A stretch of DNA of 34,402 bases. Origin: Streptococcus cristatus. Lineage in GTDB: Bacteria > Bacillota > Bacilli > Lactobacillales > Streptococcaceae. The notes beneath the pieces are model-generated. The model was not told where the DNA came from and did not search any database. It saw only the letters and a program-made list of their open reading frames with translations. Of the stretch, positions 3,166 to 29,401 are shown piece by piece (position 1 is the stretch's first letter; every line of letters begins with the position of its first letter). The stretch lies in assembly GCF_001578775.1 (NCBI RefSeq), contig NZ_KQ969062.1, positions 1,044,270 to 1,078,671 on the forward strand, given 5' to 3'. The position numbers and the translations under genes are program-made.

Positions 3166-3438
3166 ATGGGACAAATTAAATCAAGCACTATTTCAGCTAG
3201 GTCTGCTATCAGCGAGCTAGTTGGAGTTGATACCAGCAATGCACAAAATCAACAAGTCAAATTTTTCTATACAACAGGGATTGCTGGAATGGAAGCTGGC
3301 TGTCAAGCCTGCAATCAAATGCTGCAGGCTATCAGTGACTTCAGTTCGGCCGTCCTAACTCAGGCCAATAAATTTCCAGAAATTGCTGCAAAAATTGAGA
3401 AACGCGATATAGAGCAGGCTAAGCGCTGGGAGAGTTAA
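3166..3438 (+). CDS. LXG-associated small helper, TIGR04197/DUF3130 (Lap1-like) type
   Basis: This is a small, all-helical, WXG100-sized protein of 90 residues. It resembles the SACOL2603/TIGR04197 (DUF3130) group found upstream of LXG toxins. In characterised streptococcal systems such Lap proteins bind the LXG domain and are needed for export of the toxin through the type VIIb system. Visible traits are the N-terminal Ser-rich stretch, the middle segment GIAGMEAGCQACNQM and a charged C-terminal helix. AAAGGAG lies at good spacing before the ATG. It is the first gene of the operon and is followed after 1 nt by the second helper. The family call is from memory of the pattern. Confidence 0.7.
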   Translation: MGQIKSSTISARSAISELVGVDTSNAQNQQVKFFYTTGIAGMEAGCQACNQMLQAISDFSSAVLTQANKFPEIAAKIEKRDIEQAKRWES

Positions 3439-3439
3439 A

Positions 3440-3799
3440 ATGAAGGTAGATAAAAGCGAAAAAGAACGCCAAGCACTTTATGAAAAAATTCTCAAAGTTG
3501 ACGAAAAAGAAGATGAATTTATGGCTCTCAAACATCAATACGAAGATTCTCTGGTAAACTTTGCGACGGATTTCCAATATTTGACGACTCGAATGGAAAA
3601 TCTATTTTATGAGTATCCGCAAAATACTGCTTCCCTCAGTCGTGATTTAGCAGAGACTCACCATCTTAACCAACAGGTTAAGAACTATGTGGGGGTGCAG
3701 ATGGATGAACTAGAAAAGCTCGGTCGTCAAACAAGAAAGACTCTGGAAGAAGAGCGAGAAAAACTGACCAAAGAAAGGAATAGTCTGCCATGGGGGTGA
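3440..3799 (+). CDS. LXG-associated helper, DUF3958 (Lap2-like) type
   Basis: The protein has 119 residues, is highly charged and is predicted to be almost entirely helical or coiled coil (long K/E-rich heptad-like stretches at the N-terminus and from ~85 to 115). Its position between a DUF3130-type gene and an LXG gene, and its size, fit DUF3958, the second LXG partner. It starts 1 nt after the stop of the first helper with GGGAGAG ahead of the ATG. It overlaps the toxin start by 10 nt, implying translational coupling. The likely role is a cytosolic chaperone or targeting factor for the LXG domain. Confidence 0.68.
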   Translation: MKVDKSEKERQALYEKILKVDEKEDEFMALKHQYEDSLVNFATDFQYLTTRMENLFYEYPQNTASLSRDLAETHHLNQQVKNYVGVQMDELEKLGRQTRKTLEEEREKLTKERNSLPWG

Positions 3800-5406
3800 A
3801 ATATAGTGCAACAGATTCGGCCCAGCTTATCCAAGCGATGACCAGCAACCTGCAGGTGGCTAATCAGGTGACCGATCGTCTATCTAGTGGCTGCGATCAC
3901 CTGATTGCCTCTTTGGAGTCGGGTGAGCTGCAGGGAGCGGCTTATACAGCGGGAAAAGGCTTATTTACAGAAATTATAATCCCTGCTATCAAAAAGCTAC
4001 AAGCTGCTATTGATGATATTCAGGAGGAGCTGAATTCTTATAAATATGCTGACTCCACCGTATCTGAGTATGGAATACTGGATCTTGACTTGCTGAAAGA
4101 ACAGCTGGAAACAAAACAGGAGATGCTGGAGAAAACCCAAGCTCAGCTAGCAGAGCATCAATTTCTATTTCGCCGGATTATTGATGGACTTGCAGGGGTA
4201 TTAGCTGACAATCTGTCCAAGACGAATGCTCTGACAGTGCTGGAAAACCAGCTAAATATCGGCATTCGGGAAATTCAGGAAAAAATTGACAAACTGGAAT
4301 GGTTTGTGGCAGATGTTTCAAAATACTTTACAGACAGTCTAGAAATTTTGATACTAGCTATTCAAGGAGCAGTGTCATTGAGTCAAATCACAATTGATGC
4401 AGAAGGAAACTACTATACCAACGGTGCGGATATGTCCTGGATTTCCAATATGAAAAAGGAAGAAATCCGCACTTACGGCAGGGGAGAGGATCCGCGAAAA
4501 TCTTTGATTAATCAAAACATTCGGGATTTGATGCTGTCTGATGAGGCGGCAGACTATTACCGTTCGCGCCTAACAGCCTTTCTGGAAGGGAAACCATCCA
4601 GTGACTGGCCACTGTTAATCCAAGAGTTTAATAAGACTTTGAGTTTTGACCAAGATGGAAATATCTTGCTTCCTGTCCCTGTTAAAATAAATCAGGGCGG
4701 AATAGACATCTGGGTCAACATGATTTTCAAAAATGGCAAACTGGATGAGGAATATACTCAGCAGGCGATTAAAGAGCAGGCAGGTCAGTTCTTTGAGAGC
4801 TTGGGAGAAAATGCGGCAGAATTTCTAGTTGGTCTGCTAAATGTTGTCGGCGGTGCCTTACTGGATGTAGCTAGTTTAGGCTTGGGTGCCGGTGGGCTGG
4901 CTGTTGCCTTGCCGACTGGAGGTACAGTGACAATTCCGGCAACGGCTGCAGCAGTCAGCGGTCTTGCTGCTGGAACGACTATGGTTGTCGGCGGTTCGGC
5001 CGTAATGGGAGATGCCCTAAGCCAAATGGCAGCTGCTAATGCAGCCTTTCAGGTCAGCTTCGCTCAGAATTACGATAGCTGGCAGGCTAATAAACCGACG
5101 AGTAAGACCATTTCTGGCAAAGGTGGTAAGCAGATTGAAGGCAGAGCGGGAAATAGAAAAGTAAAAATTCGTGTGGATTTGGAACCAAATAGTGGTGCAG
5201 GAGGCCAAGGGAAATTACAAGTTCAGTCTGGAAGTGGAAAGTCGGGATATGATATTAATAGACACTTAAATGTTAATGAAATTACAGGAAAAGATTATAT
5301 CAGGAATTGGGTAAATAAAACTGCGGATTTAAAAAACCAAACGAAAAGTGTTAAAGAGGAAATAATCGAAAGGTTATGGAAGGGTTACCAGGAAATGGTG
5401 AATTAA
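3790..5406 (+). CDS. LXG-domain polymorphic toxin, type VIIb secretion substrate
   Basis: The protein has 538 residues and three parts. Residues ~1-210 form a helical LXG domain, with the family-like AYTAGKGLFTE at 51-61 followed by long coiled coils. A middle linker leads into a Gly/Ala-rich hydrophobic segment at ~343-415, as in the pre-toxin region of other LXG proteins. From ~438 to the end is a ~100-residue basic domain (I count 19 K/R against 11 D/E) containing KVKIRVDLEPN and GKLQVQSGSGKSGYDI. I cannot assign this toxin domain; the short beta-strand pattern faintly recalls small nuclease-type polymorphic toxin domains. No lipid II phosphatase or NADase motif is apparent. The ATG overlaps the upstream helper, with AAAGGA about 11 nt ahead. 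The downstream acidic gene family is the presumed immunity set. Confidence 0.85.
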   Translation: MGVKYSATDSAQLIQAMTSNLQVANQVTDRLSSGCDHLIASLESGELQGAAYTAGKGLFTEIIIPAIKKLQAAIDDIQEELNSYKYADSTVSEYGILDLDLLKEQLETKQEMLEKTQAQLAEHQFLFRRIIDGLAGVLADNLSKTNALTVLENQLNIGIREIQEKIDKLEWFVADVSKYFTDSLEILILAIQGAVSLSQITIDAEGNYYTNGADMSWISNMKKEEIRTYGRGEDPRKSLINQNIRDLMLSDEAADYYRSRLTAFLEGKPSSDWPLLIQEFNKTLSFDQDGNILLPVPVKINQGGIDIWVNMIFKNGKLDEEYTQQAIKEQAGQFFESLGENAAEFLVGLLNVVGGALLDVASLGLGAGGLAVALPTGGTVTIPATAAAVSGLAAGTTMVVGGSAVMGDALSQMAAANAAFQVSFAQNYDSWQANKPTSKTISGKGGKQIEGRAGNRKVKIRVDLEPNSGAGGQGKLQVQSGSGKSGYDINRHLNVNEITGKDYIRNWVNKTADLKNQTKSVKEEIIERLWKGYQEMVN

Positions 5407-5419
5407 GGAGAACAGGATT

Positions 5420-6070
5420 ATGGAACTTTATATAAAAGGTGACTTTACTAAAGAAATTCCGTTTGATTATTTGGATCTAGCGAAGAGAATGTGGTTTGAA
5501 AGTTATCAAGGAGAGGATATTCCTATCTCCTATTCTGGTTACCGTCGAATCAGAGAAGGGAATGATTTAGCCATTCATCTAAAACTAGATAAACAAGATT
5601 ATGATGAACGTTGGTTACATGTCCCAATACAAGAAGGAATAAAATACCGTTTTTATTCACAAATTGATGAAGATCTAAATTTGGATTTTGAGGGTGCTTA
5701 TGTAACAGATTGTCGCGAAAATGGAGACTATCTTTGTCTGGCTTCTACTCATCTTAAGCTATTGACACTTGACAGACGGGCTATGTATATCATGGCTGTT
5801 GAGATTGCTACAATCTTTGATGGACAAATCAGTGAAGATGGCAAAAAAAGCTGGATAAGCGTTGAGGAATTCAAGGCAAGGCACAGTGATACATTATCTC
5901 TAACCTTTGAGGAAGCGAATGAGAAGAGCTTGGAAGAAATTCGGACAATAGATCCTACAGAAGAGCCTCTTTGGGCTGAATTGGACCAAAAGCGTGAAGA
6001 ATATATCCGAATTCATGGGGAGGCAGAGCTGGGTGATGAATATGAGGAAGAAGATGAGGAGGATGAGTGA
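5420..6070 (+). CDS. Presumed immunity protein, copy 1 (subtype A)
   Basis: This is the first of nine tandem paralogues after the toxin, with 216 residues. The family has no name I can give. Shared traits are an N-terminus MxLYIKGDxTK, a KRMWFE motif near residue 30, a variable middle, a conserved block from ~117 (LDRRAMYIMAVEIAT, FDGQISEDGKKSW, EEFKARH), then EEPLWAELDQKREEYIRIHGE and an extremely acidic tail. There is no signal peptide or membrane segment, so it is probably cytosolic. It lies 13 nt after the toxin stop with AAGGAG before the ATG. The cognate immunity role is inferred from adjacency and charge complementarity with the basic toxin end. Confidence 0.75.
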   Translation: MELYIKGDFTKEIPFDYLDLAKRMWFESYQGEDIPISYSGYRRIREGNDLAIHLKLDKQDYDERWLHVPIQEGIKYRFYSQIDEDLNLDFEGAYVTDCRENGDYLCLASTHLKLLTLDRRAMYIMAVEIATIFDGQISEDGKKSWISVEEFKARHSDTLSLTFEEANEKSLEEIRTIDPTEEPLWAELDQKREEYIRIHGEAELGDEYEEEDEEDE

Positions 6071-6708
6071 GACTCTATATCAAAGGTGACTACACCAAAA
6101 CAGATTTTTATGACGAGTTTAAAGAAATGGCTAGAAAAATGTGGTTCAAGGAACGAAAGGGAATTGAACTAGATTTTTCCTATGCTTGGGATGAAGATTT
6201 GCATTTAAATTTGAAGTTGGATAAATTTAAATACAATGACGAGCGTTGGGGGAATGCGGATTTCAAGAAAAATATAAATCCTTGGAAGACATTGAAGTAT
6301 GAAAATTTGACAATGGATCTTGAGGATTCCTACGAAAGCGATGGCCGCGAAAAAGGTGATTATCTGCGACTTCTCTCAACGCATTTGGATATCTTGACAG
6401 TTGATAAGCGGGGCATGTATATCATGGCAATTGAAGTGGCATCAGCTATTGACGGTCAAATTAGTGAAGATGATAAAGAAACTTGGCTGACGATTGAAGA
6501 GTTCAGAACCACACATCAAGATTTGCTTGACTTGACTTACGATGAAGCTGTTGACATCAGCTTGGAAGAATTAAAGGTCATGAAAGCAGTAGATGAGCCT
6601 CTTTGGGACGAGCTGCACAAAGGGCGCGAAGAATACATTAAAATTCATGGTGAGAGGGTTTATGATGATGACGATGATGAAGATTTCGAGGACGAGGAGG
6701 ATGAGTGA
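6067..6708 (+). CDS. Presumed immunity protein, copy 2 (subtype B)
   Basis: This paralogue has 213 residues and starts at a GTG that overlaps the previous stop by 4 nt (GTGA). The AGGAGG at 6057-6062 lies inside the Glu codons of copy 1's acidic tail. The N-terminal half (KTDFYDEFKEMARKMWFKERKG, then a variable middle) differs from copy 1. The C-terminal half (TVDKRGMYIMAIEVASAIDG, SEDDKETW, SLEELKVMKAVDEPLW, IKIHGERVY) is close to copies 3 and 4. The tail is almost all Asp/Glu. It is the only copy of its N-terminal type and is intact. Confidence 0.7.
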   Translation: MRLYIKGDYTKTDFYDEFKEMARKMWFKERKGIELDFSYAWDEDLHLNLKLDKFKYNDERWGNADFKKNINPWKTLKYENLTMDLEDSYESDGREKGDYLRLLSTHLDILTVDKRGMYIMAIEVASAIDGQISEDDKETWLTIEEFRTTHQDLLDLTYDEAVDISLEELKVMKAVDEPLWDELHKGREEYIKIHGERVYDDDDDEDFEDEEDE

Positions 6709-7349
6709 GACTTTATCTTAAAGGAAACTACGAAACCAGCATCTATCAGGTCAGCCTGGAATACCCGTGGAAAATGTGGTTTAAGGAGCGCAAGGGAGAG
6801 CAGCTTAGTTTTTCCTATGCGCGTGATGATGATTTTTATCTAAGTTTAACCTTGGATAAATTTTCTTCTAACGATGAACGTTGGGCAACAGCTGATTTTA
6901 GAACGAGAGATAACTCTTGAGATACTTTTAAACGTGAGAATCTAAATCTAAATTTTGAAGATTCCTATGAAAGTGATGGTCGTGAGAAAGGAGAGTTTCT
7001 GAGAATTATAACATCCCATGAGGAAGTCCTGACGGTCGACAAGCGGGCTTTGTATATCATGGCGATTGAAGTAGCAACAGCTATTGACGGCCAAATTAGT
7101 GAGGATGACAAAAAAACTTGGCTGAGTATCGAGGAGTTCAGAACTAAGCATCAAGATTTGCTTGATTTGACCTACGATGAAGCTGTTGATATCAGCTTGG
7201 AAGAATTAAAGGTCATGAAAGCAGTAGATGAACCACTCTGGCCTGAGTTAGACAGAAAACGTGAAGACTATATCCGAATTCACGGCGAGGCAGAGCTAGA
7301 TGATGAATACGAAGACGACGATAATTTCGAGGACGAGGAGAATGAGTGA
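6705..7349 (+). pseudogene. Presumed immunity gene, copy 3 (subtype C), broken by one nonsense change
   Basis: Start GTG 6705 overlaps copy 2 by 4 nt. The frame is continuous to 7349 except for TGA at 6918-6920 (codon 72). At this place the paralogue at 9846 has TGG in the DNPWSS motif, so a single G-to-A change accounts for the stop. Both sides retain full homology: NYETSIYQ at the start, and RALYIMAIEVATAIDG plus the acidic tail at the end. A downstream ATG at 7050 could only give the conserved C-terminal half (99 residues). A sequencing error is possible but would have to mimic a Trp codon change. Confidence 0.8.
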
Positions 7350-7990
7350 GACTCTATATCAAAGGCGACTATTCTAAAAAAATACCATTTGGCTATAAAG
7401 AATTAGCGCAGAAAATGTGGTTCAAGGAACGCAAGGGGCATGAACTTGAGTTTTCCAATGTTGGGGACGACGAAATGCTGCAGGATGATTTCTTATTCGG
7501 AGTAGAATTAAGGAAATGGGGGACGGTTGATGAAAGATGGTCCGATGCTTCATTTGTTGTTTCTGATAACCCATGGTTATCCTTGGAATACGAAAATATT
7601 GGTTTAGAATTTGAAAAAGCTTTTATTTCGGATTACCGCGAAAGAGGAGAGTGCCTCCGAATTGCCTCAGGGCATGTTGACATTTTAACGGTTGATAAGC
7701 GCGCCCTGTTTATCATGGCCATTGAGGTCGCAAGTGCCATTGATGGTCAGATTAGCGAGGACGAGAAGCAAAGCTGGCTGAATGTAGAAGAGTTTCAGAA
7801 ACGCCATCAGGATGTTCTTTCCTTGACTTACGATGAAGCAGTTGATATCAGCTTGGAAGAATTAAAAGTTATGAAAGCCGTAGATGAACCACTTTGGGAA
7901 GAAGAGGAGCGGCTTCATGAAGAATACATCAAAATCCACGGCGAGCGTGTCTATGATGACGATGATTTCGAGGACGAGGAGGACGAATGA
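7346..7990 (+). CDS. Presumed immunity protein, copy 4 (subtype D)
   Basis: This paralogue has 214 residues and a GTG start overlapping copy 3's stop by 4 nt. GAGGAG within the acidic-tail codons of copy 3 serves as the ribosome site. Its N-terminal half carries the subtype-D signature SNVGDDEMLQDDF (shared with copy 7) and RKWGTVDERW. Its C-terminal half (SAIDGQISEDEKQSW, SLTYDEAVDISLEELK, IKIHGERVYDDDD) follows the family. The gene is intact and predicted cytosolic and strongly acidic. Confidence 0.7.
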   Translation: MRLYIKGDYSKKIPFGYKELAQKMWFKERKGHELEFSNVGDDEMLQDDFLFGVELRKWGTVDERWSDASFVVSDNPWLSLEYENIGLEFEKAFISDYRERGECLRIASGHVDILTVDKRALFIMAIEVASAIDGQISEDEKQSWLNVEEFQKRHQDVLSLTYDEAVDISLEELKVMKAVDEPLWEEEERLHEEYIKIHGERVYDDDDFEDEEDE

Positions 7991-8619
7991 GGCTTTACAT
8001 CAAAGGCGATTATACCAAAGAAATTCCATTTGATTACTTGGAACTGGCGAAAAGGATGTGGTTTGAGAAAAAAGATGGAATAGAGCCAGATTTGTCGTAT
8101 GCTGGGTATTTAGATTTACCAATCGAGAAACTTTCTATTCACTTAGAATTAGACAAGAAAACTCATGATGATAGGTGGAAAAGTGTTCGGATAAAGAAAG
8201 GGATTAAATATGATTTTTTATCCCATAAGTCAGAATATATACAGTTAGACTATGAAGATGCTATCATGTCGGATTTTCGTGAGAAAGGTGAATGTTTAAG
8301 AATTGCTTCTAAGCACCTTGACCTTCTCACTGTTGATAAACGAGCTATGTATATTATGGCCATTGAAATTGCGACTGCTATTGATGGTCAGATTAGCGAA
8401 GATGATAAAGAGAGCTGGTTAAGTGTGGAGGAATTTAAAAAACGGCATGAGGATATCCTTTCGATGAGTTATGAAGAGGCTAATGAGCTGAGTTTGGAAG
8501 AAATTCCCTTTTTGGGCGATGTGAGAGACCCAGTTTGGGAAGACGATGACCGTAGAAATGAAGAATACATCAAAATCCATGGAGAAGTGGAGTTGGATGA
8601 CGATGAGGACGACGAGTGA
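7987..8619 (+). CDS. Presumed immunity protein, copy 5 (subtype A')
   Basis: This paralogue has 210 residues and an ATG start in an ATGA overlap with copy 4, preceded by GAGGAGG within tail codons. Its N-terminus (DYTKEIPFDYLELAKRMWFE) is nearly the same as in copy 1, so it is a second subtype-A gene. The middle diverges (SYAGYLDLPIEKLSIHLELDK). The C-terminal block is conserved (DKRAMYIMAIEIATAIDG, SEDDKESW), and the tail ends in a DDDEDDE run. It is intact. Confidence 0.7.
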   Translation: MRLYIKGDYTKEIPFDYLELAKRMWFEKKDGIEPDLSYAGYLDLPIEKLSIHLELDKKTHDDRWKSVRIKKGIKYDFLSHKSEYIQLDYEDAIMSDFREKGECLRIASKHLDLLTVDKRAMYIMAIEIATAIDGQISEDDKESWLSVEEFKKRHEDILSMSYEEANELSLEEIPFLGDVRDPVWEDDDRRNEEYIKIHGEVELDDDEDDE

Positions 8620-9223
8620 AACTATATCTTAAAGGTGATTATACAAAAAAGATACCTTATGGTTATCTAGAGCTTGCTGGAAAAATGTGGTTTCCAGAAG
8701 AAAAGCAAGTATCTTACTCAATGCTGGGAATAATGATGCATTACAAGAGGATTTTTCTGTAAATTTATCCTTGAGGAAAAGTACTGCAGATAAGCGATGG
8801 TCTAGTGTCCCTCTAAAGGAAGGGGTACGAATACTCTTTTCGCATCTTAACGAATGTATTGAGATAGAGTTTGAAGATGCGTTTGCTACGGATTATAATG
8901 AAAAGGGGGACTATCTTCGCATTTTAACTAGCCATCTAGAAATCTTGACAGTAGACAAACGAGCCATGTACATTATTGCACTTGAGATTGCAAAGGTGAT
9001 TGACGGGCAAATTAGCGAGGATGGTAAGAATAGCTGGTTGACAATTGAAGAGTTTAAAAGAAAACACGAGGCTATTCTATCTCTGACTTTTGAAGAAGCA
9101 AATGAAATCAGTCTGACAGAAATTCAAACAATGGATGTTATAGACGATCCTCTTTGGGAGGAAGAAGCTATTCGTCGAAAAGAATATATACTAGCACATG
9201 GAGGCGATATCTCAGATTTATGA
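8616..9223 (+). pseudogene. Presumed immunity gene, copy 6 (subtype E), frameshifted
   Basis: GTG 8616 overlaps copy 5 by 4 nt and opens a normal family N-terminus (KLYLKGDYTKKIPYGYLELAG). Near 8720 the sequence reads TCAATGC where the related copy at 10454 has TCAAATGC, so one A is missing and the frame changes. Downstream the family continues perfectly in the other frame to 9223 (NAGNNDALQEDF, DKRAMYIIALEIAKVIDG, SEDGKNSW). A GTG at 8687 could start the downstream frame but has no ribosome site. Unlike the other copies it ends HGGDISDL with no long acidic tail. Confidence 0.78.
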
Positions 9224-9849
9224 GACTATATATCAAAAGTGGTTTTAAGAAAAAAATAACCTTTACAACAAGAGAGTTGCTCTGGAAAATGTGGTTTAAG
9301 GAGTGGCATGGTCATCCTATTACATACTCAAACGTCGGTGATGATGAGATGTTACAAGATGATTTTTACTTTGTAGTAAGCTTTGATAAATGGCGTTTTT
9401 TTGACTCAAGATGGAATAATATTCCCTCTTATGATTTAAAAAATCCGTGGAATTCCTATAAATATGAAAATATATCCCTTGAATTTGAAAAAACTTTCAT
9501 TACAGAGTGGAGAGAACGTGGAGATTATCTACGTATCGCAACATCTCATATAGATGTTTTAACAGTAGATAAACGTGCTTTATACATTATGGCGGTCGAG
9601 GTTGCGAGTGCAATAGATGGGGATATCAGCGAGGATGACAAAGAGACATGGTTGGATGTAGAGACTTTTAAGGAGCTACATAAGGATGTTCTTTCACTGA
9701 CTTATGATGAAGCTGTTGAAATCAGTTTGGAAGAATTAAAGACAATGGTACCGGTAAGAGATCCTCTATGGGAAGAGGAGGAAAGGCTTCGAGAAGAATA
9801 TATCAAAATCCACGGTGAACGTGTTTATGACGATGAGGAAGATGAGTGA
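9220..9849 (+). CDS. Presumed immunity protein, copy 7 (subtype D')
   Basis: The ATG at 9220 (ATGA overlap with copy 6) gives 209 residues starting MRLYIKSGFKKKI, aligning with all other copies. An in-frame upstream start is possible but lies in copy 6 sequence. It carries the subtype-D signature SNVGDDEMLQDDF as in copy 4, then DKWRFFDSRW, DKRALYIMAVEVASAIDG, SEDDKETW and a short acidic tail (DDEEDE). The nearest GGAGG is about 15 nt upstream, so coupling to copy 6 translation may be poor. It is intact. Confidence 0.68.
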   Translation: MRLYIKSGFKKKITFTTRELLWKMWFKEWHGHPITYSNVGDDEMLQDDFYFVVSFDKWRFFDSRWNNIPSYDLKNPWNSYKYENISLEFEKTFITEWRERGDYLRIATSHIDVLTVDKRALYIMAVEVASAIDGDISEDDKETWLDVETFKELHKDVLSLTYDEAVEISLEELKTMVPVRDPLWEEEERLREEYIKIHGERVYDDEEDE

Positions 9850-10457
9850 GACTATATCTTAAAGGCAACTACGAAACTAGTATTTACCAAAACTGTATGG
9901 AATATCCTTGGAAAATGTGGTTCAAGGAACGTAAGGGAGTGAAAGTTGGTTTTTCTTATGCACGTGATGATGACTTCTATTTTAGTGTTAGTTTGGATAA
10001 ATTTTCTTCAAATGATGAGCGTTGGGGAATGACTGATTTTAAAATAGGAGATAATCCATGGAGTTCATTTAAATATGAGTATCTAATATTGGATTGTGAA
10101 GATTCCTATGAAAGTGATGGGCGAGAAAAAGGAGACTATCTTCGAATAATCACGACTCATAAGGATATTCTAACGGTTGATAAGCGAGCTCTCTATATCA
10201 TTGCGATTGAAGTAGCATCTGTCATTGACGGTCAAATCAGCGAAGACGACAAAGAAACATAGCTGAGCCTTGAAGAATTCAAAATGAAACATATAGACCT
10301 GCTGAATTTGACCTACGACGAAGCGGTCGATATTAGTTTAGAAGAGATAAAGGTTATGAAAGCGATAGACGAGCCTCTCTGGGAAGAATTGGATAGGAAG
10401 CGTGAAGAGTACATTCGAATTCATGGAGAGGTAGAGTTGGACGACGAGGACGAATGA
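9846..10457 (+). pseudogene. Presumed immunity gene, copy 8 (subtype C'), broken by one nonsense change
   Basis: GTG 9846 overlaps copy 7 by 4 nt. The frame runs to TGA 10455-10457 but contains TAG at 10260-10262 (codon 139), exactly at the Trp of the conserved SEDDKETW motif (TGG in other copies). The N-terminus NYETSIYQ and the middle SYARDDDFYFSVSLDKFSS match copy 3. The truncated product (138 residues) would lack the C-terminal third and the acidic tail. The rest is still recognisable (EEFKMKH, VMKAIDEPLW, YIRIHGEVELDDEDE). Confidence 0.8.
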
Positions 10458-10640
10458 AATTATACTTAAAAGGCGATTATACAAAAAAGATACCTTACGG
10501 TTATCTAGAGCTTGCTGGTAAAATGTGGTTTCCAGAGGATGAGCAGGTTTCTTACTCAAATGCTGGGAATAATGATGCATTGCAAAAGGATTTTTTTCAA
10601 ATTTATCCTTGAGGAAAGGCACTTTCGATAAGAGGTGGGT
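10454..10640 (+). pseudogene. Presumed immunity gene, copy 9 (subtype E'), frameshifted and truncated
   Basis: ATG 10454 (ATGA overlap with copy 8) begins KLYLKGDYTKKIPYGYLELAG, the same N-terminus as copy 6, and continues through PEDEQVSYSNAGNNDALQ. A one-base loss at about 10592-10600 relative to copy 6 leads to TGA at 10610-10612, giving 52 residues. In the shifted frame the homology continues only to about 10640 (Leu-Arg-Lys, then Asp-Lys-Arg-Trp) and then stops, so the rest of the gene is deleted. This marks the right edge of the array. Confidence 0.75.
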
Positions 10641-28009: not shown

Positions 28010-29401
28010 ATGAAAAATAGGAAGCGTTCTTTATTTTGGAAATGCAAATCTGTTTTATTTTCAGTTGCCCTAGCATCTGTATTCACAACGGTTACACAAG
28101 CTGATGCTGATGAGGTAAATAAGCCAAGTCAAGCTGCTAATGAGTTAGCTCAAGTAAGCTCAAATGAACTTGCTGCTAAAACAACTCAGGCTAATCAACA
28201 ACTTTCTGAGACAGCCAAAGAGATTCAAGAAAAGGTTAGTACTCCAGTAGTGCCAATTGATAAGGCTAAACCTGGTGATGTAGTGAAAGTATCTACTACT
28301 TCTACTGATGTCAAAGTGGATACGAAAGAAAATGAATCCGGTACAGAAGCTGTTGCTAAAGCAGAGGCTTCTGTGAGTGTTGAGACAACTAGTGTAGCTG
28401 CTAAAGGAACTGCTGTTGGAGAAAAAGCGCCAGTTGCTACATCAAAGACAGTTACCGATCATGTTGATACGGATGAGTATGTAGCTGATGTTACTCAGAC
28501 CATCAAGAAGACAACATTTGAAAAAGTGATGAAAGAAGCAGATGTGACAATTACGAAGCAATCGTCTGGTTCTGCTGATATCGTTTTTACTATTGATAAG
28601 TCAGGTTCAATGGGTTCATCTATTCAGAATGTTATGCAAAATATTGAGGCTTTTGTCCGTGATTTGGCTAGTAAAAAGGTTGATGCTCGTCTTGGCTTAA
28701 TCGCGTATGAGTCTGCTAAGGATGTTCAATATTTCGATTTTAATGGGTCTAAATTCACTAAGAATGTAGAAGAGTATATTAAGGCTCTTAGATCTATTCA
28801 AACAGGTGGTGGAACAGAAGAGCCTACAGCCCCTCTTCATCATATTGCAACTTCAAAAGATTACGATTGGTCTACAGCTTCTAATAATCGTCGTTTTGCT
28901 TTCTTGATTACTGATGAAAGTATCGATTTCAGTACTCCAGGTATTCCAACAGTAGAAGAAACTCTGAAAGCTCTTAAAGCGGCTGATATTTCCCTATCGG
29001 TTGTGGGTGTAACATACGAAAAAACGACTTTTAAACCTCTAGTTGAAGGAACAAAAGGTCTTTACCTTGATATTCGTCAAGAATTTTCTAGTCTTTTAAA
29101 TCGTGATTTTACAAATCATGTTGTTAAGACTGTCCAAGAAGGACGTGTTTACCGCATTGTGACAGAGAAATATGACTTCTTGGCAGAAGCACATGTCGTA
29201 CTTAAGCAAAAAGCTCCGGCTCCTACAGTAGCGAAACCTATTGGAAGTACGAAGCCAGTTTATCATACTACATCAATTTCTAATAAGGTGGCTGAATTAC
29301 CAAAAACTGGGGAGCAAGTTTCTTCAGGTTTGGCTGTAGTTGGAGTAGCATTAGTTGCAGTAGCTTCAGGATTGACTATTAGTGCTAAGAAAAAAGACTA
29401 A
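28010..29401 (+). CDS. LPXTG cell-wall-anchored protein with von Willebrand factor A domain
   Basis: The protein has 463 residues. The signal peptide (KNRKRSLFWKCKS, hydrophobic core, then ADADEV) ends near residue 33. A Ser/Thr/Ala/Lys-rich helical or stalk region runs to ~150. The vWA domain spans ~190-375 with MIDAS residues D196, S198 and S200 (DKSGSMG), GGGTEEP supplying the Thr, and LITDES for the Asp. The sortase signal LPKTG is at 430-434, followed by a hydrophobic segment and KKKD. It is probably a host-ligand or matrix-binding adhesin. AAAGGAGAA precedes the ATG. It is monocistronic, ending at a strong terminator. Confidence 0.92.
   Translation: MKNRKRSLFWKCKSVLFSVALASVFTTVTQADADEVNKPSQAANELAQVSSNELAAKTTQANQQLSETAKEIQEKVSTPVVPIDKAKPGDVVKVSTTSTDVKVDTKENESGTEAVAKAEASVSVETTSVAAKGTAVGEKAPVATSKTVTDHVDTDEYVADVTQTIKKTTFEKVMKEADVTITKQSSGSADIVFTIDKSGSMGSSIQNVMQNIEAFVRDLASKKVDARLGLIAYESAKDVQYFDFNGSKFTKNVEEYIKALRSIQTGGGTEEPTAPLHHIATSKDYDWSTASNNRRFAFLITDESIDFSTPGIPTVEETLKALKAADISLSVVGVTYEKTTFKPLVEGTKGLYLDIRQEFSSLLNRDFTNHVVKTVQEGRVYRIVTEKYDFLAEAHVVLKQKAPAPTVAKPIGSTKPVYHTTSISNKVAELPKTGEQVSSGLAVVGVALVAVASGLTISAKKKD

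What the first reader, a model, noticed from the sequence alone, without database searches (positions are those of the whole stretch)
5420..10640. Nine-gene tandem array of one acidic protein family behind an LXG toxin
Nine paralogues of about 205-216 residues follow the toxin in a chain of 4-nt overlaps. All share the DKRAxYIMAIEVA / DGQISEDxKxxW / EPLWEE / YIKIHGE blocks and most have a D/E-rich tail. Arrays of immunity homologues are known downstream of other T7SS toxins (for example EsaG copies beside EsaD in staphylococci), but I recognise no named family here. The basic toxin end and acidic partners suggest charge-based neutralisation, and the variety suggests defence against several toxin variants of competing strains.
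Basis: partly seen in the sequence, partly recalled or inferred. Interest (0 to 1): 0.75.

Follow-up and report, generated by a model that had tools for sequence, protein, structure and literature searches.

The report
Antidote library behind a bacterial toxin
A streptococcus, probably from the mouth, carries right behind one of its predicted secreted toxin genes a row of nine related genes (five intact, four broken) that likely make antidotes: the first is predicted to protect the cell from its own toxin, and others resemble the genes that sit beside different versions of that toxin in other streptococci, so the row would work as a stored set of antidotes against rivals.

Summary
The array is real: nine copies of one protein family behind an LXG toxin, eight of eight junctions overlapping by 4 nt. 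Five copies are intact; 3, 6 and 8 are interrupted, 9 is truncated. Neither the copies nor the toxin's last ~110 residues (the tip) credibly matched Pfam, NCBIfam or solved structures.

In Streptococcus the family occurs in 29 of 284 genomes, including all 23 with the tip. The toxin-adjacent copy follows the tip: same-tip locus pairs share its class in 27 of 28 cases, different-tip pairs in 7 of 225; the link survives control for the toxin backbone (partial r 0.59, p 0.001). Tip plus copy 1 moves as one cassette. At the main threshold all ten copy classes include a toxin-adjacent gene; at 15% only 11 of 16 do. Arrays hold few duplicates (4 same-class pairs, 19.5 expected). Four genomes keep the array at the same site without the toxin block.

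Best reading: copy 1 neutralises the strain's own tip, later copies protect against tips of other streptococci. Such arrays are known (EsaG, TipC, V. cholerae T6SS); this is a new, unusually decodable member. Toxicity, export and neutralisation are untested.

The parts
3166..3438 (+). Lap1-like gene (TIGR04197-like, 90 aa)
   Evidence: TIGR04197 E 1.2e-4, 22.5 bits, below the 26-bit cut-off; the FxxxD motif was not seen by eye in the translation
3440..3799 (+). Lap2-like gene (119 aa, predicted helical)
   Evidence: position between Lap1-like gene and toxin; DUF3958 only E 0.048, below cut-off; homologues in the same place in most tip loci
3790..5406 (+). LXG toxin gene, 538 aa; LXG match at residues 12-121, glycine-rich stretch about 345-430
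   Evidence: PF04740 28.8 bits, cut-off 26.5
5071..5403 (+). Toxin tip (residues 428-538): conserved RVDxEP core and variable end of about 50 residues
   Evidence: alignment of 23 tips; model pLDDT 85
5420..6070 (+). Copy 1, 216 aa, intact, class 7: predicted antidote to the window's own tip (type 4)
   Evidence: toxin-adjacent; model pLDDT 83.7
6067..6708 (+). Copy 2, 213 aa, intact, class 8: N part 72% to the gene beside tip type 7 (next class 58%)
6705..7349 (+). Copy 3, broken (TGA at 6918-6920), class 0 (tip type 10) by its first piece
7346..7990 (+). Copy 4, 214 aa, intact, class 1: N part 72% to genes beside tip type 2 (next class 58%)
7987..8619 (+). Copy 5, 210 aa, intact, class 4: N part 88% to the gene beside tip type 3
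8616..9223 (+). Copy 6, broken (split between two frames), class 2 (tip type 0) by its pieces
9220..9849 (+). Copy 7, 209 aa, intact, class 6: N part 73% to the gene beside tip type 9 (next class 69%, weak)
9846..10457 (+). Copy 8, broken (TAG at 10260-10262), class 0 (tip type 10) by its first piece
10454..10612 (+). Copy 9, truncated after about 52 codons, class 2 (tip type 0) by its piece

Best explanation
The nine tandem genes are five intact and four broken copies of one family without a Pfam or NCBIfam model that likely act as antidotes: copy 1 is predicted to bind and block the tip of the LXG toxin encoded just upstream, and the other intact copies would protect the cell from versions of that tip carried by other streptococci. 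The toxin is predicted to leave by the type VII secretion system with Lap1-like and Lap2-like helpers. Its last ~110 residues (conserved RVDxEP...QxG.G core, variable ~50-residue end) would be the toxic part; its chemistry is unknown. Each antidote has a variable N part (about residues 1-114), inferred to read the variable end of the tip, and a conserved C part. Shown by sequence: tip and copy 1 move together as one cassette between toxin backbones and species; later copies are under purifying selection and rarely duplicate a class within an array. Inferred: a new tip-plus-antidote cassette replaces the old tip while older antidotes stay behind it, giving a set of different specificities; copies no longer needed decay.
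For: All 23 tip-bearing genomes of 284 in the genus have the family. Position 1: same-tip pairs share the copy class in 27 of 28, different-tip pairs in 7 of 225; position 3: 1 of 12 and 7 of 54. Partial r 0.594, p 0.001, for variable tip end against N part of copy 1 given LXG and glycine-rich parts (19 loci with intact toxins). Cassette movement seen in both directions. Few duplicates: 4 same-class pairs, 19.5 expected, p 0.0001. N-part dN/dS 0.20 among later copies, 0.15 among first copies. Arrays kept without the toxin block at the same site in four genomes. Tip-antidote adjacency also in the eight loci read outside Streptococcus with a tip.
Against: No toxicity, binding or protection was tested. 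At a 15% threshold only 11 of 16 classes have a toxin-adjacent member, and window copies 2, 4 and 7 are then without one. Copy 7 is nearly as close to another class. The toxin-adjacent members of classes 5 and 8 stand beside tips of broken toxins (L081, L087). Tip types 1 and 8 share class 3. In L102 the first intact copy is not of the expected class, though a deleted remnant is. The C part also follows the tip (partial r 0.45), so specificity is not proven to lie in the N part alone. In the window against its three same-site relatives identity falls from about toxin residue 180-210, well before the tip.
Confidence: 0.85

Rival explanations
1. The extra copies are plain tandem duplicates of the cognate antidote, kept for dosage or drifting, without targets of their own.
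For: Tandem arrangement with overlaps; four of nine window copies broken.
Against: Within arrays there are far fewer same-class pairs than chance (4, expected 19.5). Copies in one array are no closer to each other than to copies elsewhere (different-class pairs: 5' part 0.544 within, 0.546 between; 3' part 0.680 and 0.691). N-part dN/dS of later copies is 0.20.
Confidence: 0.04
2. The toxic part is the glycine-rich membrane-like stretch before the tip, as in TelE, and the family neutralises that stretch.
For: The stretch is rich in glycine and hydrophobic residues; TelE and EsxX are LXG toxins with a glycine zipper (PMC10434224, passages; PMC12744356, abstract start only).
Against: The glycine-rich part does not track copy 1 once the tip is accounted for (partial r 0.135, p 0.10), whereas the tip does; unlike backbones with the same tip have near-identical copy 1.
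Confidence: 0.06
3. The conserved C part makes these proteins secretion adaptors or chaperones for the toxin, with immunity secondary.
For: Conserved C part and variable N part, as in S. suis MSE-ExT immunity proteins whose C-terminal region recruits the effector (PMC12558993, passages).
Against: Four genomes keep whole arrays without the toxin block; Lap1-like and Lap2-like genes already stand in the operon; DUF6572, the family of the S. suis region, does not appear among matches at E<=0.1. A second role is not excluded.
Confidence: 0.05

Closest known systems
TipC arrays beside TelC, streptococcal T7SS (PMC9484751, section 18; PMC6193138, passages)
   Same: LXG toxin with Lap1/Lap2 helpers in Streptococcus, many tandem immunity paralogues (15 in S. 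mitis BCC08), orphan copies thought to protect against other strains.
   Different: TipC is membrane-bound, faces outside and counters a lipid II phosphatase; its arrays show conserved blocks at both ends and recombination between paralogues. Here no signal peptide is evident, the variable part is N-terminal, and no concerted evolution within arrays was found.
EsaG arrays beside EsaD, Staphylococcus aureus T7SS (PMC9484751, abstract and passages)
   Same: Strings of up to twelve non-identical immunity genes behind a polymorphic T7SS toxin.
   Different: Another toxin and immunity family; array change there is driven by recombination between paralogues. Here classes map onto toxin-adjacent genes of other genomes.
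Orphan immunity arrays of Vibrio cholerae T6SS (PMC5361080, abstract and passages)
   Same: Old immunity genes stay behind when a new effector-immunity pair replaces the effector; array members match effector-linked genes of other strains.
   Different: T6SS of a Gram-negative; array members are of different families. Here one family, in T7SS, with tip swapping on LXG backbones.
TelE-TipE, S. gallolyticus T7SS (PMC10434224, passages)
   Same: LXG toxin with variants and a small soluble immunity protein.
   Different: TipE is a 151-aa DUF5085 protein; DUF5085 did not appear among the Pfam matches of this family.
MSE-ExT immunity proteins, S. suis (PMC12558993, passages)
   Same: Divergent N part matching toxin types, conserved C-terminal region.
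   Different: Effectors lack the YeeF domain and are NADase-like; the conserved region is DUF6572, not found here at E<=0.1.

Membership tests
LXG effector of T7SSb | LXG domain above Pfam cut-off | tested here: met
   28.8 bits, cut-off 26.5
LXG effector of T7SSb | EssC ATPase in the genome | tested here: met
   TIGR03928 over cut-off, 1480-aa frame
LXG effector of T7SSb | T7SS-dependent export | not testable with these tools
   needs an experiment
Lap1 (DUF3130/TIGR04197) and Lap2 (DUF3958) helpers | Family match above cut-off | tested here: inconclusive
   TIGR04197 22.5 of 26 bits; DUF3958 14.4 of 26.3 bits
Lap1 (DUF3130/TIGR04197) and Lap2 (DUF3958) helpers | FxxxD motif in Lap1 (PMC9600955, passages) | tested here: not met
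   not seen by eye in the translation; hence only 'Lap1-like'
Polymorphic toxin with immunity array (kind of system) | Variable toxin tips on shared backbones | tested here: met
Polymorphic toxin with immunity array (kind of system) | Adjacent gene specific to the tip | tested here: met
   27 of 28 and 7 of 225; partial r 0.594; sequence association, not binding
Polymorphic toxin with immunity array (kind of system) | Array members match toxin-adjacent genes of other strains | tested here: met
   10 of 10 classes at 25%, 10 of 12 at 20%, 11 of 16 at 15%
Polymorphic toxin with immunity array (kind of system) | Toxicity and neutralisation | not testable with these tools
   needs an experiment
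Curated immunity families in Pfam/NCBIfam (among them DUF5085 of TipE and DUF443 of TsaI/TipD) | Match to the family model | tested here: not met
   51 copies scanned: best Pfam E 0.011 (DUF3884), best NCBIfam E 0.017, none an immunity family
Known toxin fold for the tip | Structural match to a solved toxin | tested here: inconclusive

The most novel reading that the evidence does not exclude
The array is an ordered memory of past toxins. In the three other genomes with the same insertion site, the front of each array reappears as an inner block of the window's array: L082's front (tip 3) at copies 5-6, L080's front (tip 0) at 6-7, L079's front (tip 2) at L080 copies 2-3 and window copies 7-8, each headed by the gene matching its present tip. 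Either every tip swap adds an antidote at the toxin end and leaves the old one behind, or stored antidotes serve as homologous landing sites where a matching tip cassette recombines in and deletes what lies before it, so that a cell takes up a toxin to which it is already immune. A strain's resistance spectrum and weapon history could then be read from its array, and the array outlives the weapon.
Probability: 0.4. Interest if true: 0.8.

Novelty: new member of a known kind. Interest (0 to 1): 0.62.

Why it matters
Arrays of immunity genes behind T7SS toxins are known, but which rival toxins the extra copies are for is usually unclear. Here array classes can be matched by sequence to toxin-adjacent genes of other streptococci, which gives testable predictions of who is protected from whom, a candidate specificity region, and a case where antidotes persist at a site from which the toxin block is missing. 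Neither the toxin tip nor the antidote family had a model in the Pfam and NCBIfam copies searched.

Tried and rejected
Concerted evolution or gene conversion within arrays, suggested by the similar C-terminal blocks of window copies 2-4: not supported. 3' DNA identity of different-class pairs is 0.680 within arrays and 0.691 between. Some 3' sharing exists across classes: 36 different-class pairs at >=0.93, the 15 best all between classes 4 and 5.

Charge matching as the basis of specificity: not significant (rho -0.34, p 0.12).

L102 as a counter-example: its toxin is broken, and the gap before its first intact copy holds the start and the end of an internally deleted copy whose start is 92% identical to window copy 1. 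This was looked at after the counts; L102 stays a miss, and its remnant is not counted among the first copies (counting it would make 1 of 22 broken).

Rows dropped: L089 (tip split between frames) from the tip set, leaving 23 of 24 tip loci; five loci with broken toxins (L081, L087, L089, L100, L102); L097 (near-duplicate of L083) from the redundancy, concerted-evolution, selection and breakage counts; L103 (a field of fragments) from the class set; ORFs under 185 aa from the class set (102 of 125 kept). In one search I chose 20 pairs by hand. The 25% and 22% thresholds were single choices; the sweep came afterwards. One search has no shuffled control.
Full report
WHAT IS THERE. The window (C1:1044270-1078671 of a 2.2 Mb, 44-contig genome) holds an operon-like run: a Lap1-like gene (3166-3438), a Lap2-like gene (3440-3799), an LXG toxin gene (3790-5406; PF04740, 28.8 bits, cut-off 26.5) and nine copies of one family (5420-10612). 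All eight copy junctions overlap by 4 nt. Five copies are intact (1, 2, 4, 5, 7); copy 3 has a TGA, copy 8 a TAG, copy 6 is split between frames, copy 9 ends after about 52 codons. The genome has an EssC with a 1480-aa frame. Flanking genes (dnaD side and trmK side, names by similarity and recall) are 92-100% identical in L079, L080 and L082.

FAMILY STATUS. Of 51 copies scanned none matches a Pfam or NCBIfam model credibly (best E 0.011 and 0.017). No solved sequence matches copy 4 or the profile. Of 23 tips none matches credibly (best E 0.037 and 0.019), nor any solved sequence. Protein search: 2367 relatives of copy 4 and 349 of toxin residues 400-538 at E<=0.01, 120 of each listed. Models: tip pLDDT 85 (five strands, then helices); copy 1 pLDDT 83.7 with residues 205-216 of the acidic tail below 50. 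No confident fold match for either.

LINKAGE. In 284 genomes of the genus the tip was found in 23 and the family in 29, including all 23. I fetched 32 stretches around such hits from other genomes and 3 from the window's own, and used 29 loci (window + 28) with 125 family ORFs, of which 102 were long enough to classify. There are 24 tip loci; L089, whose tip is split between frames, was left out. In 395 genomes of the order, 13 have the tip, five outside Streptococcus, and 18 have the family, six outside. In the seven stretches fetched from those five genomes and in a Streptococcaceae MAG (L128) the tip is directly followed by a homologue. Of four such toxins scanned, three (L142, L143, L144) match LXG above cut-off and the MAG toxin does not, though it resembles the window's LXG part (E 1.8e-48).

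SPECIFICITY. Copies have a variable N part (mean identity 0.49 over all pairs of 102) and a conserved C part (0.70). Clustering N parts at 25% difference gave 10 classes and tips at 22% gave 11 types; each class includes a toxin-adjacent copy, but those of classes 5 and 8 stand beside tips of broken toxins. Position 1: same-tip pairs share the class in 27 of 28, different-tip pairs in 7 of 225; position 2: 7 of 19 and 7 of 101 (p 0.012); position 3: 1 of 12 and 7 of 54 (p 0.88). Over copy thresholds of 15-35% the same-tip figure stays 27 of 28 at tip thresholds of 15% and 22%, and the different-tip figure runs from 5 to 12 of 225; at a tip threshold of 30% the same-tip figure is 27 of 39. For 19 loci with intact toxins, the variable tip end against the N part of copy 1, given LXG and glycine-rich parts, has partial r 0.594 (p 0.001), against the C part 0.452 (p 0.001); LXG and the glycine-rich part given the tip have r 0.07 and 0.135 with the N part (p 0.26 and 0.10). 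Among seven tip-antidote pairs from outside Streptococcus, tip and antidote identities also correlate (rho 0.67, p 0.0009 on 21 non-independent comparisons).

CASSETTE. DNA identity profiles over toxin and copy 1 (20 hand-chosen pairs) show both directions. One backbone with different tips drops after about residue 420-480 (L101-L098, L080-L082, L106-L095). Different backbones with the same tip rise there (L091-L080, L085-L098, L079-L088: 0.82-0.99 from residue 451 to copy 1 residue 182, lower in the tail bin). In the window's own pairs with L079, L080 and L082 identity falls already from about residue 180-210, so more than the tip differs there.

WHAT THE WINDOW CARRIES. Copy 1: class 7, own tip (type 4); no other intact toxin-adjacent class 7 copy was seen. 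Copy 5: class 4, N part 88% to the gene beside tip type 3. Copies 2 and 4: 72% to genes beside types 7 and 2, next class 58%. Copy 7: 73% to the gene beside type 9, next class 69%, so weak. Broken copies 3 and 8 are class 0 (type 10), broken copies 6 and 9 class 2 (type 0), judged from separate pieces. At a 15% threshold copies 2, 4 and 7 have no toxin-adjacent partner, so their exact targets may be unsampled; one frequent tip type of the protein collection (27 of 118 tips) is in none of my loci. Predicted: protection against types 3 and 4, perhaps 2, 7 and 9; not against 0 and 10.

MAINTENANCE. Within arrays there are 4 same-class pairs, 19.5 expected (28 arrays, 96 copies, p 0.0001). N-part dN/dS is 0.15 among first copies, 0.18 between first and later, 0.20 among later copies. 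In arrays of two or more, first copies are broken in 0 of 22, middle in 9 of 61, last in 6 of 22 (first against last p 0.021); L102's deleted remnant, found later, is not counted there. Four genomes (L083, L094, L096, L097) have the array directly behind an ABC permease that in L092, L093, L095 and L106 (96-97% identical) stands before Lap1-like, Lap2-like, toxin and array: the toxin block is missing, the array kept. None of the four has the tip; two of them (G148, G149) show no LXG match. All six genomes with family matches but no tip have a near full-length EssC.

ORDER. At the window's site the fronts of L082, L080 and L079 align as contiguous inner blocks of the window's array: copies 5-6 (91%, 825 bp), 6-7 (83%, 1235 bp) and 7-8 (81%, 1237 bp); L079's front is also L080 copies 2-3 (92%). 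The fit is not perfect: window copy 7 is class 6 where L080 and L079 have class 1, and the later copies of L080 are not in the same order. Over four sites, 28 of 110 ordered same-site pairs with different or no tip show the front block starting at an inner copy of the other array (no shuffled control). L142, outside Streptococcus, has toxin, antidote, antidote, stand-alone tip, antidote, which looks like a displaced pair. This fits sequential displacement as proposed for V. cholerae T6SS (PMC5361080), or recombination into stored copies; the data do not decide.

EXCEPTIONS. L102 carries tip type 4 but its first intact copy is class 1; its toxin is broken and the gap of about 170 bp holds an internally deleted copy that starts like window copy 1 (92% over 116 bp). 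Tip types 1 and 8 share class 3.

NOVELTY. Immunity arrays behind T7SS toxins (EsaG; TipC with 15 copies in one S. mitis: PMC9484751, abstract, passages, section 18), protection by orphans (PMC6193138, passages) and the displacement model (PMC5361080, abstract and passages) are in print. Other papers opened: PMC10434224 and PMC12558993 (passages), PMC9600955 (passages, section 7), PMC13392607 (abstract; not used). In six paper searches no listed title or abstract start describes this family or tip; full texts beyond those named were not read. Hence a new member of a known kind, with unusually complete decoding.

Noticed in passing
Window's genome C1:71782-171773: Eleven or more of the 14 EssC (TIGR03928) matches, two over the cut-off and many partial, are strung along about 100 kb: a stretch of repeated essC copies and fragments.
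   Followed up: no
Window's genome C2:175750-175866; also G020:C5:85307, G023:C5:150234, G024:C23:478: A relic of only the last ~37 residues of the family (model positions about 171-210), a few kb downstream of another LXG gene in the window's genome and G023.
   Followed up: partly
L103 1687-12600 (G206:C1 near 2.01 Mb): A field of family fragments on both strands, away from the tip-bearing locus of that genome.
   Followed up: no
L148 4351-5313: A 320-aa protein with two family-like halves in one frame, next to a stand-alone tip fragment.
   Followed up: no
L142 2703-5989: Toxin, two antidotes, a stand-alone tip (75 aa), another antidote: looks like a displaced tip-antidote pair kept in place.
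   Followed up: partly
L099 4853-5464: A lone family member without a tip-bearing toxin in its genome; a transposase-like gene (IS30-like by recall) lies about 1 kb upstream.
   Followed up: no
window 28010-29401: 463-aa secreted protein with a VWA-like stretch and a C-terminal LPKTG motif (by eye): a probable wall-anchored surface protein.
   Followed up: no
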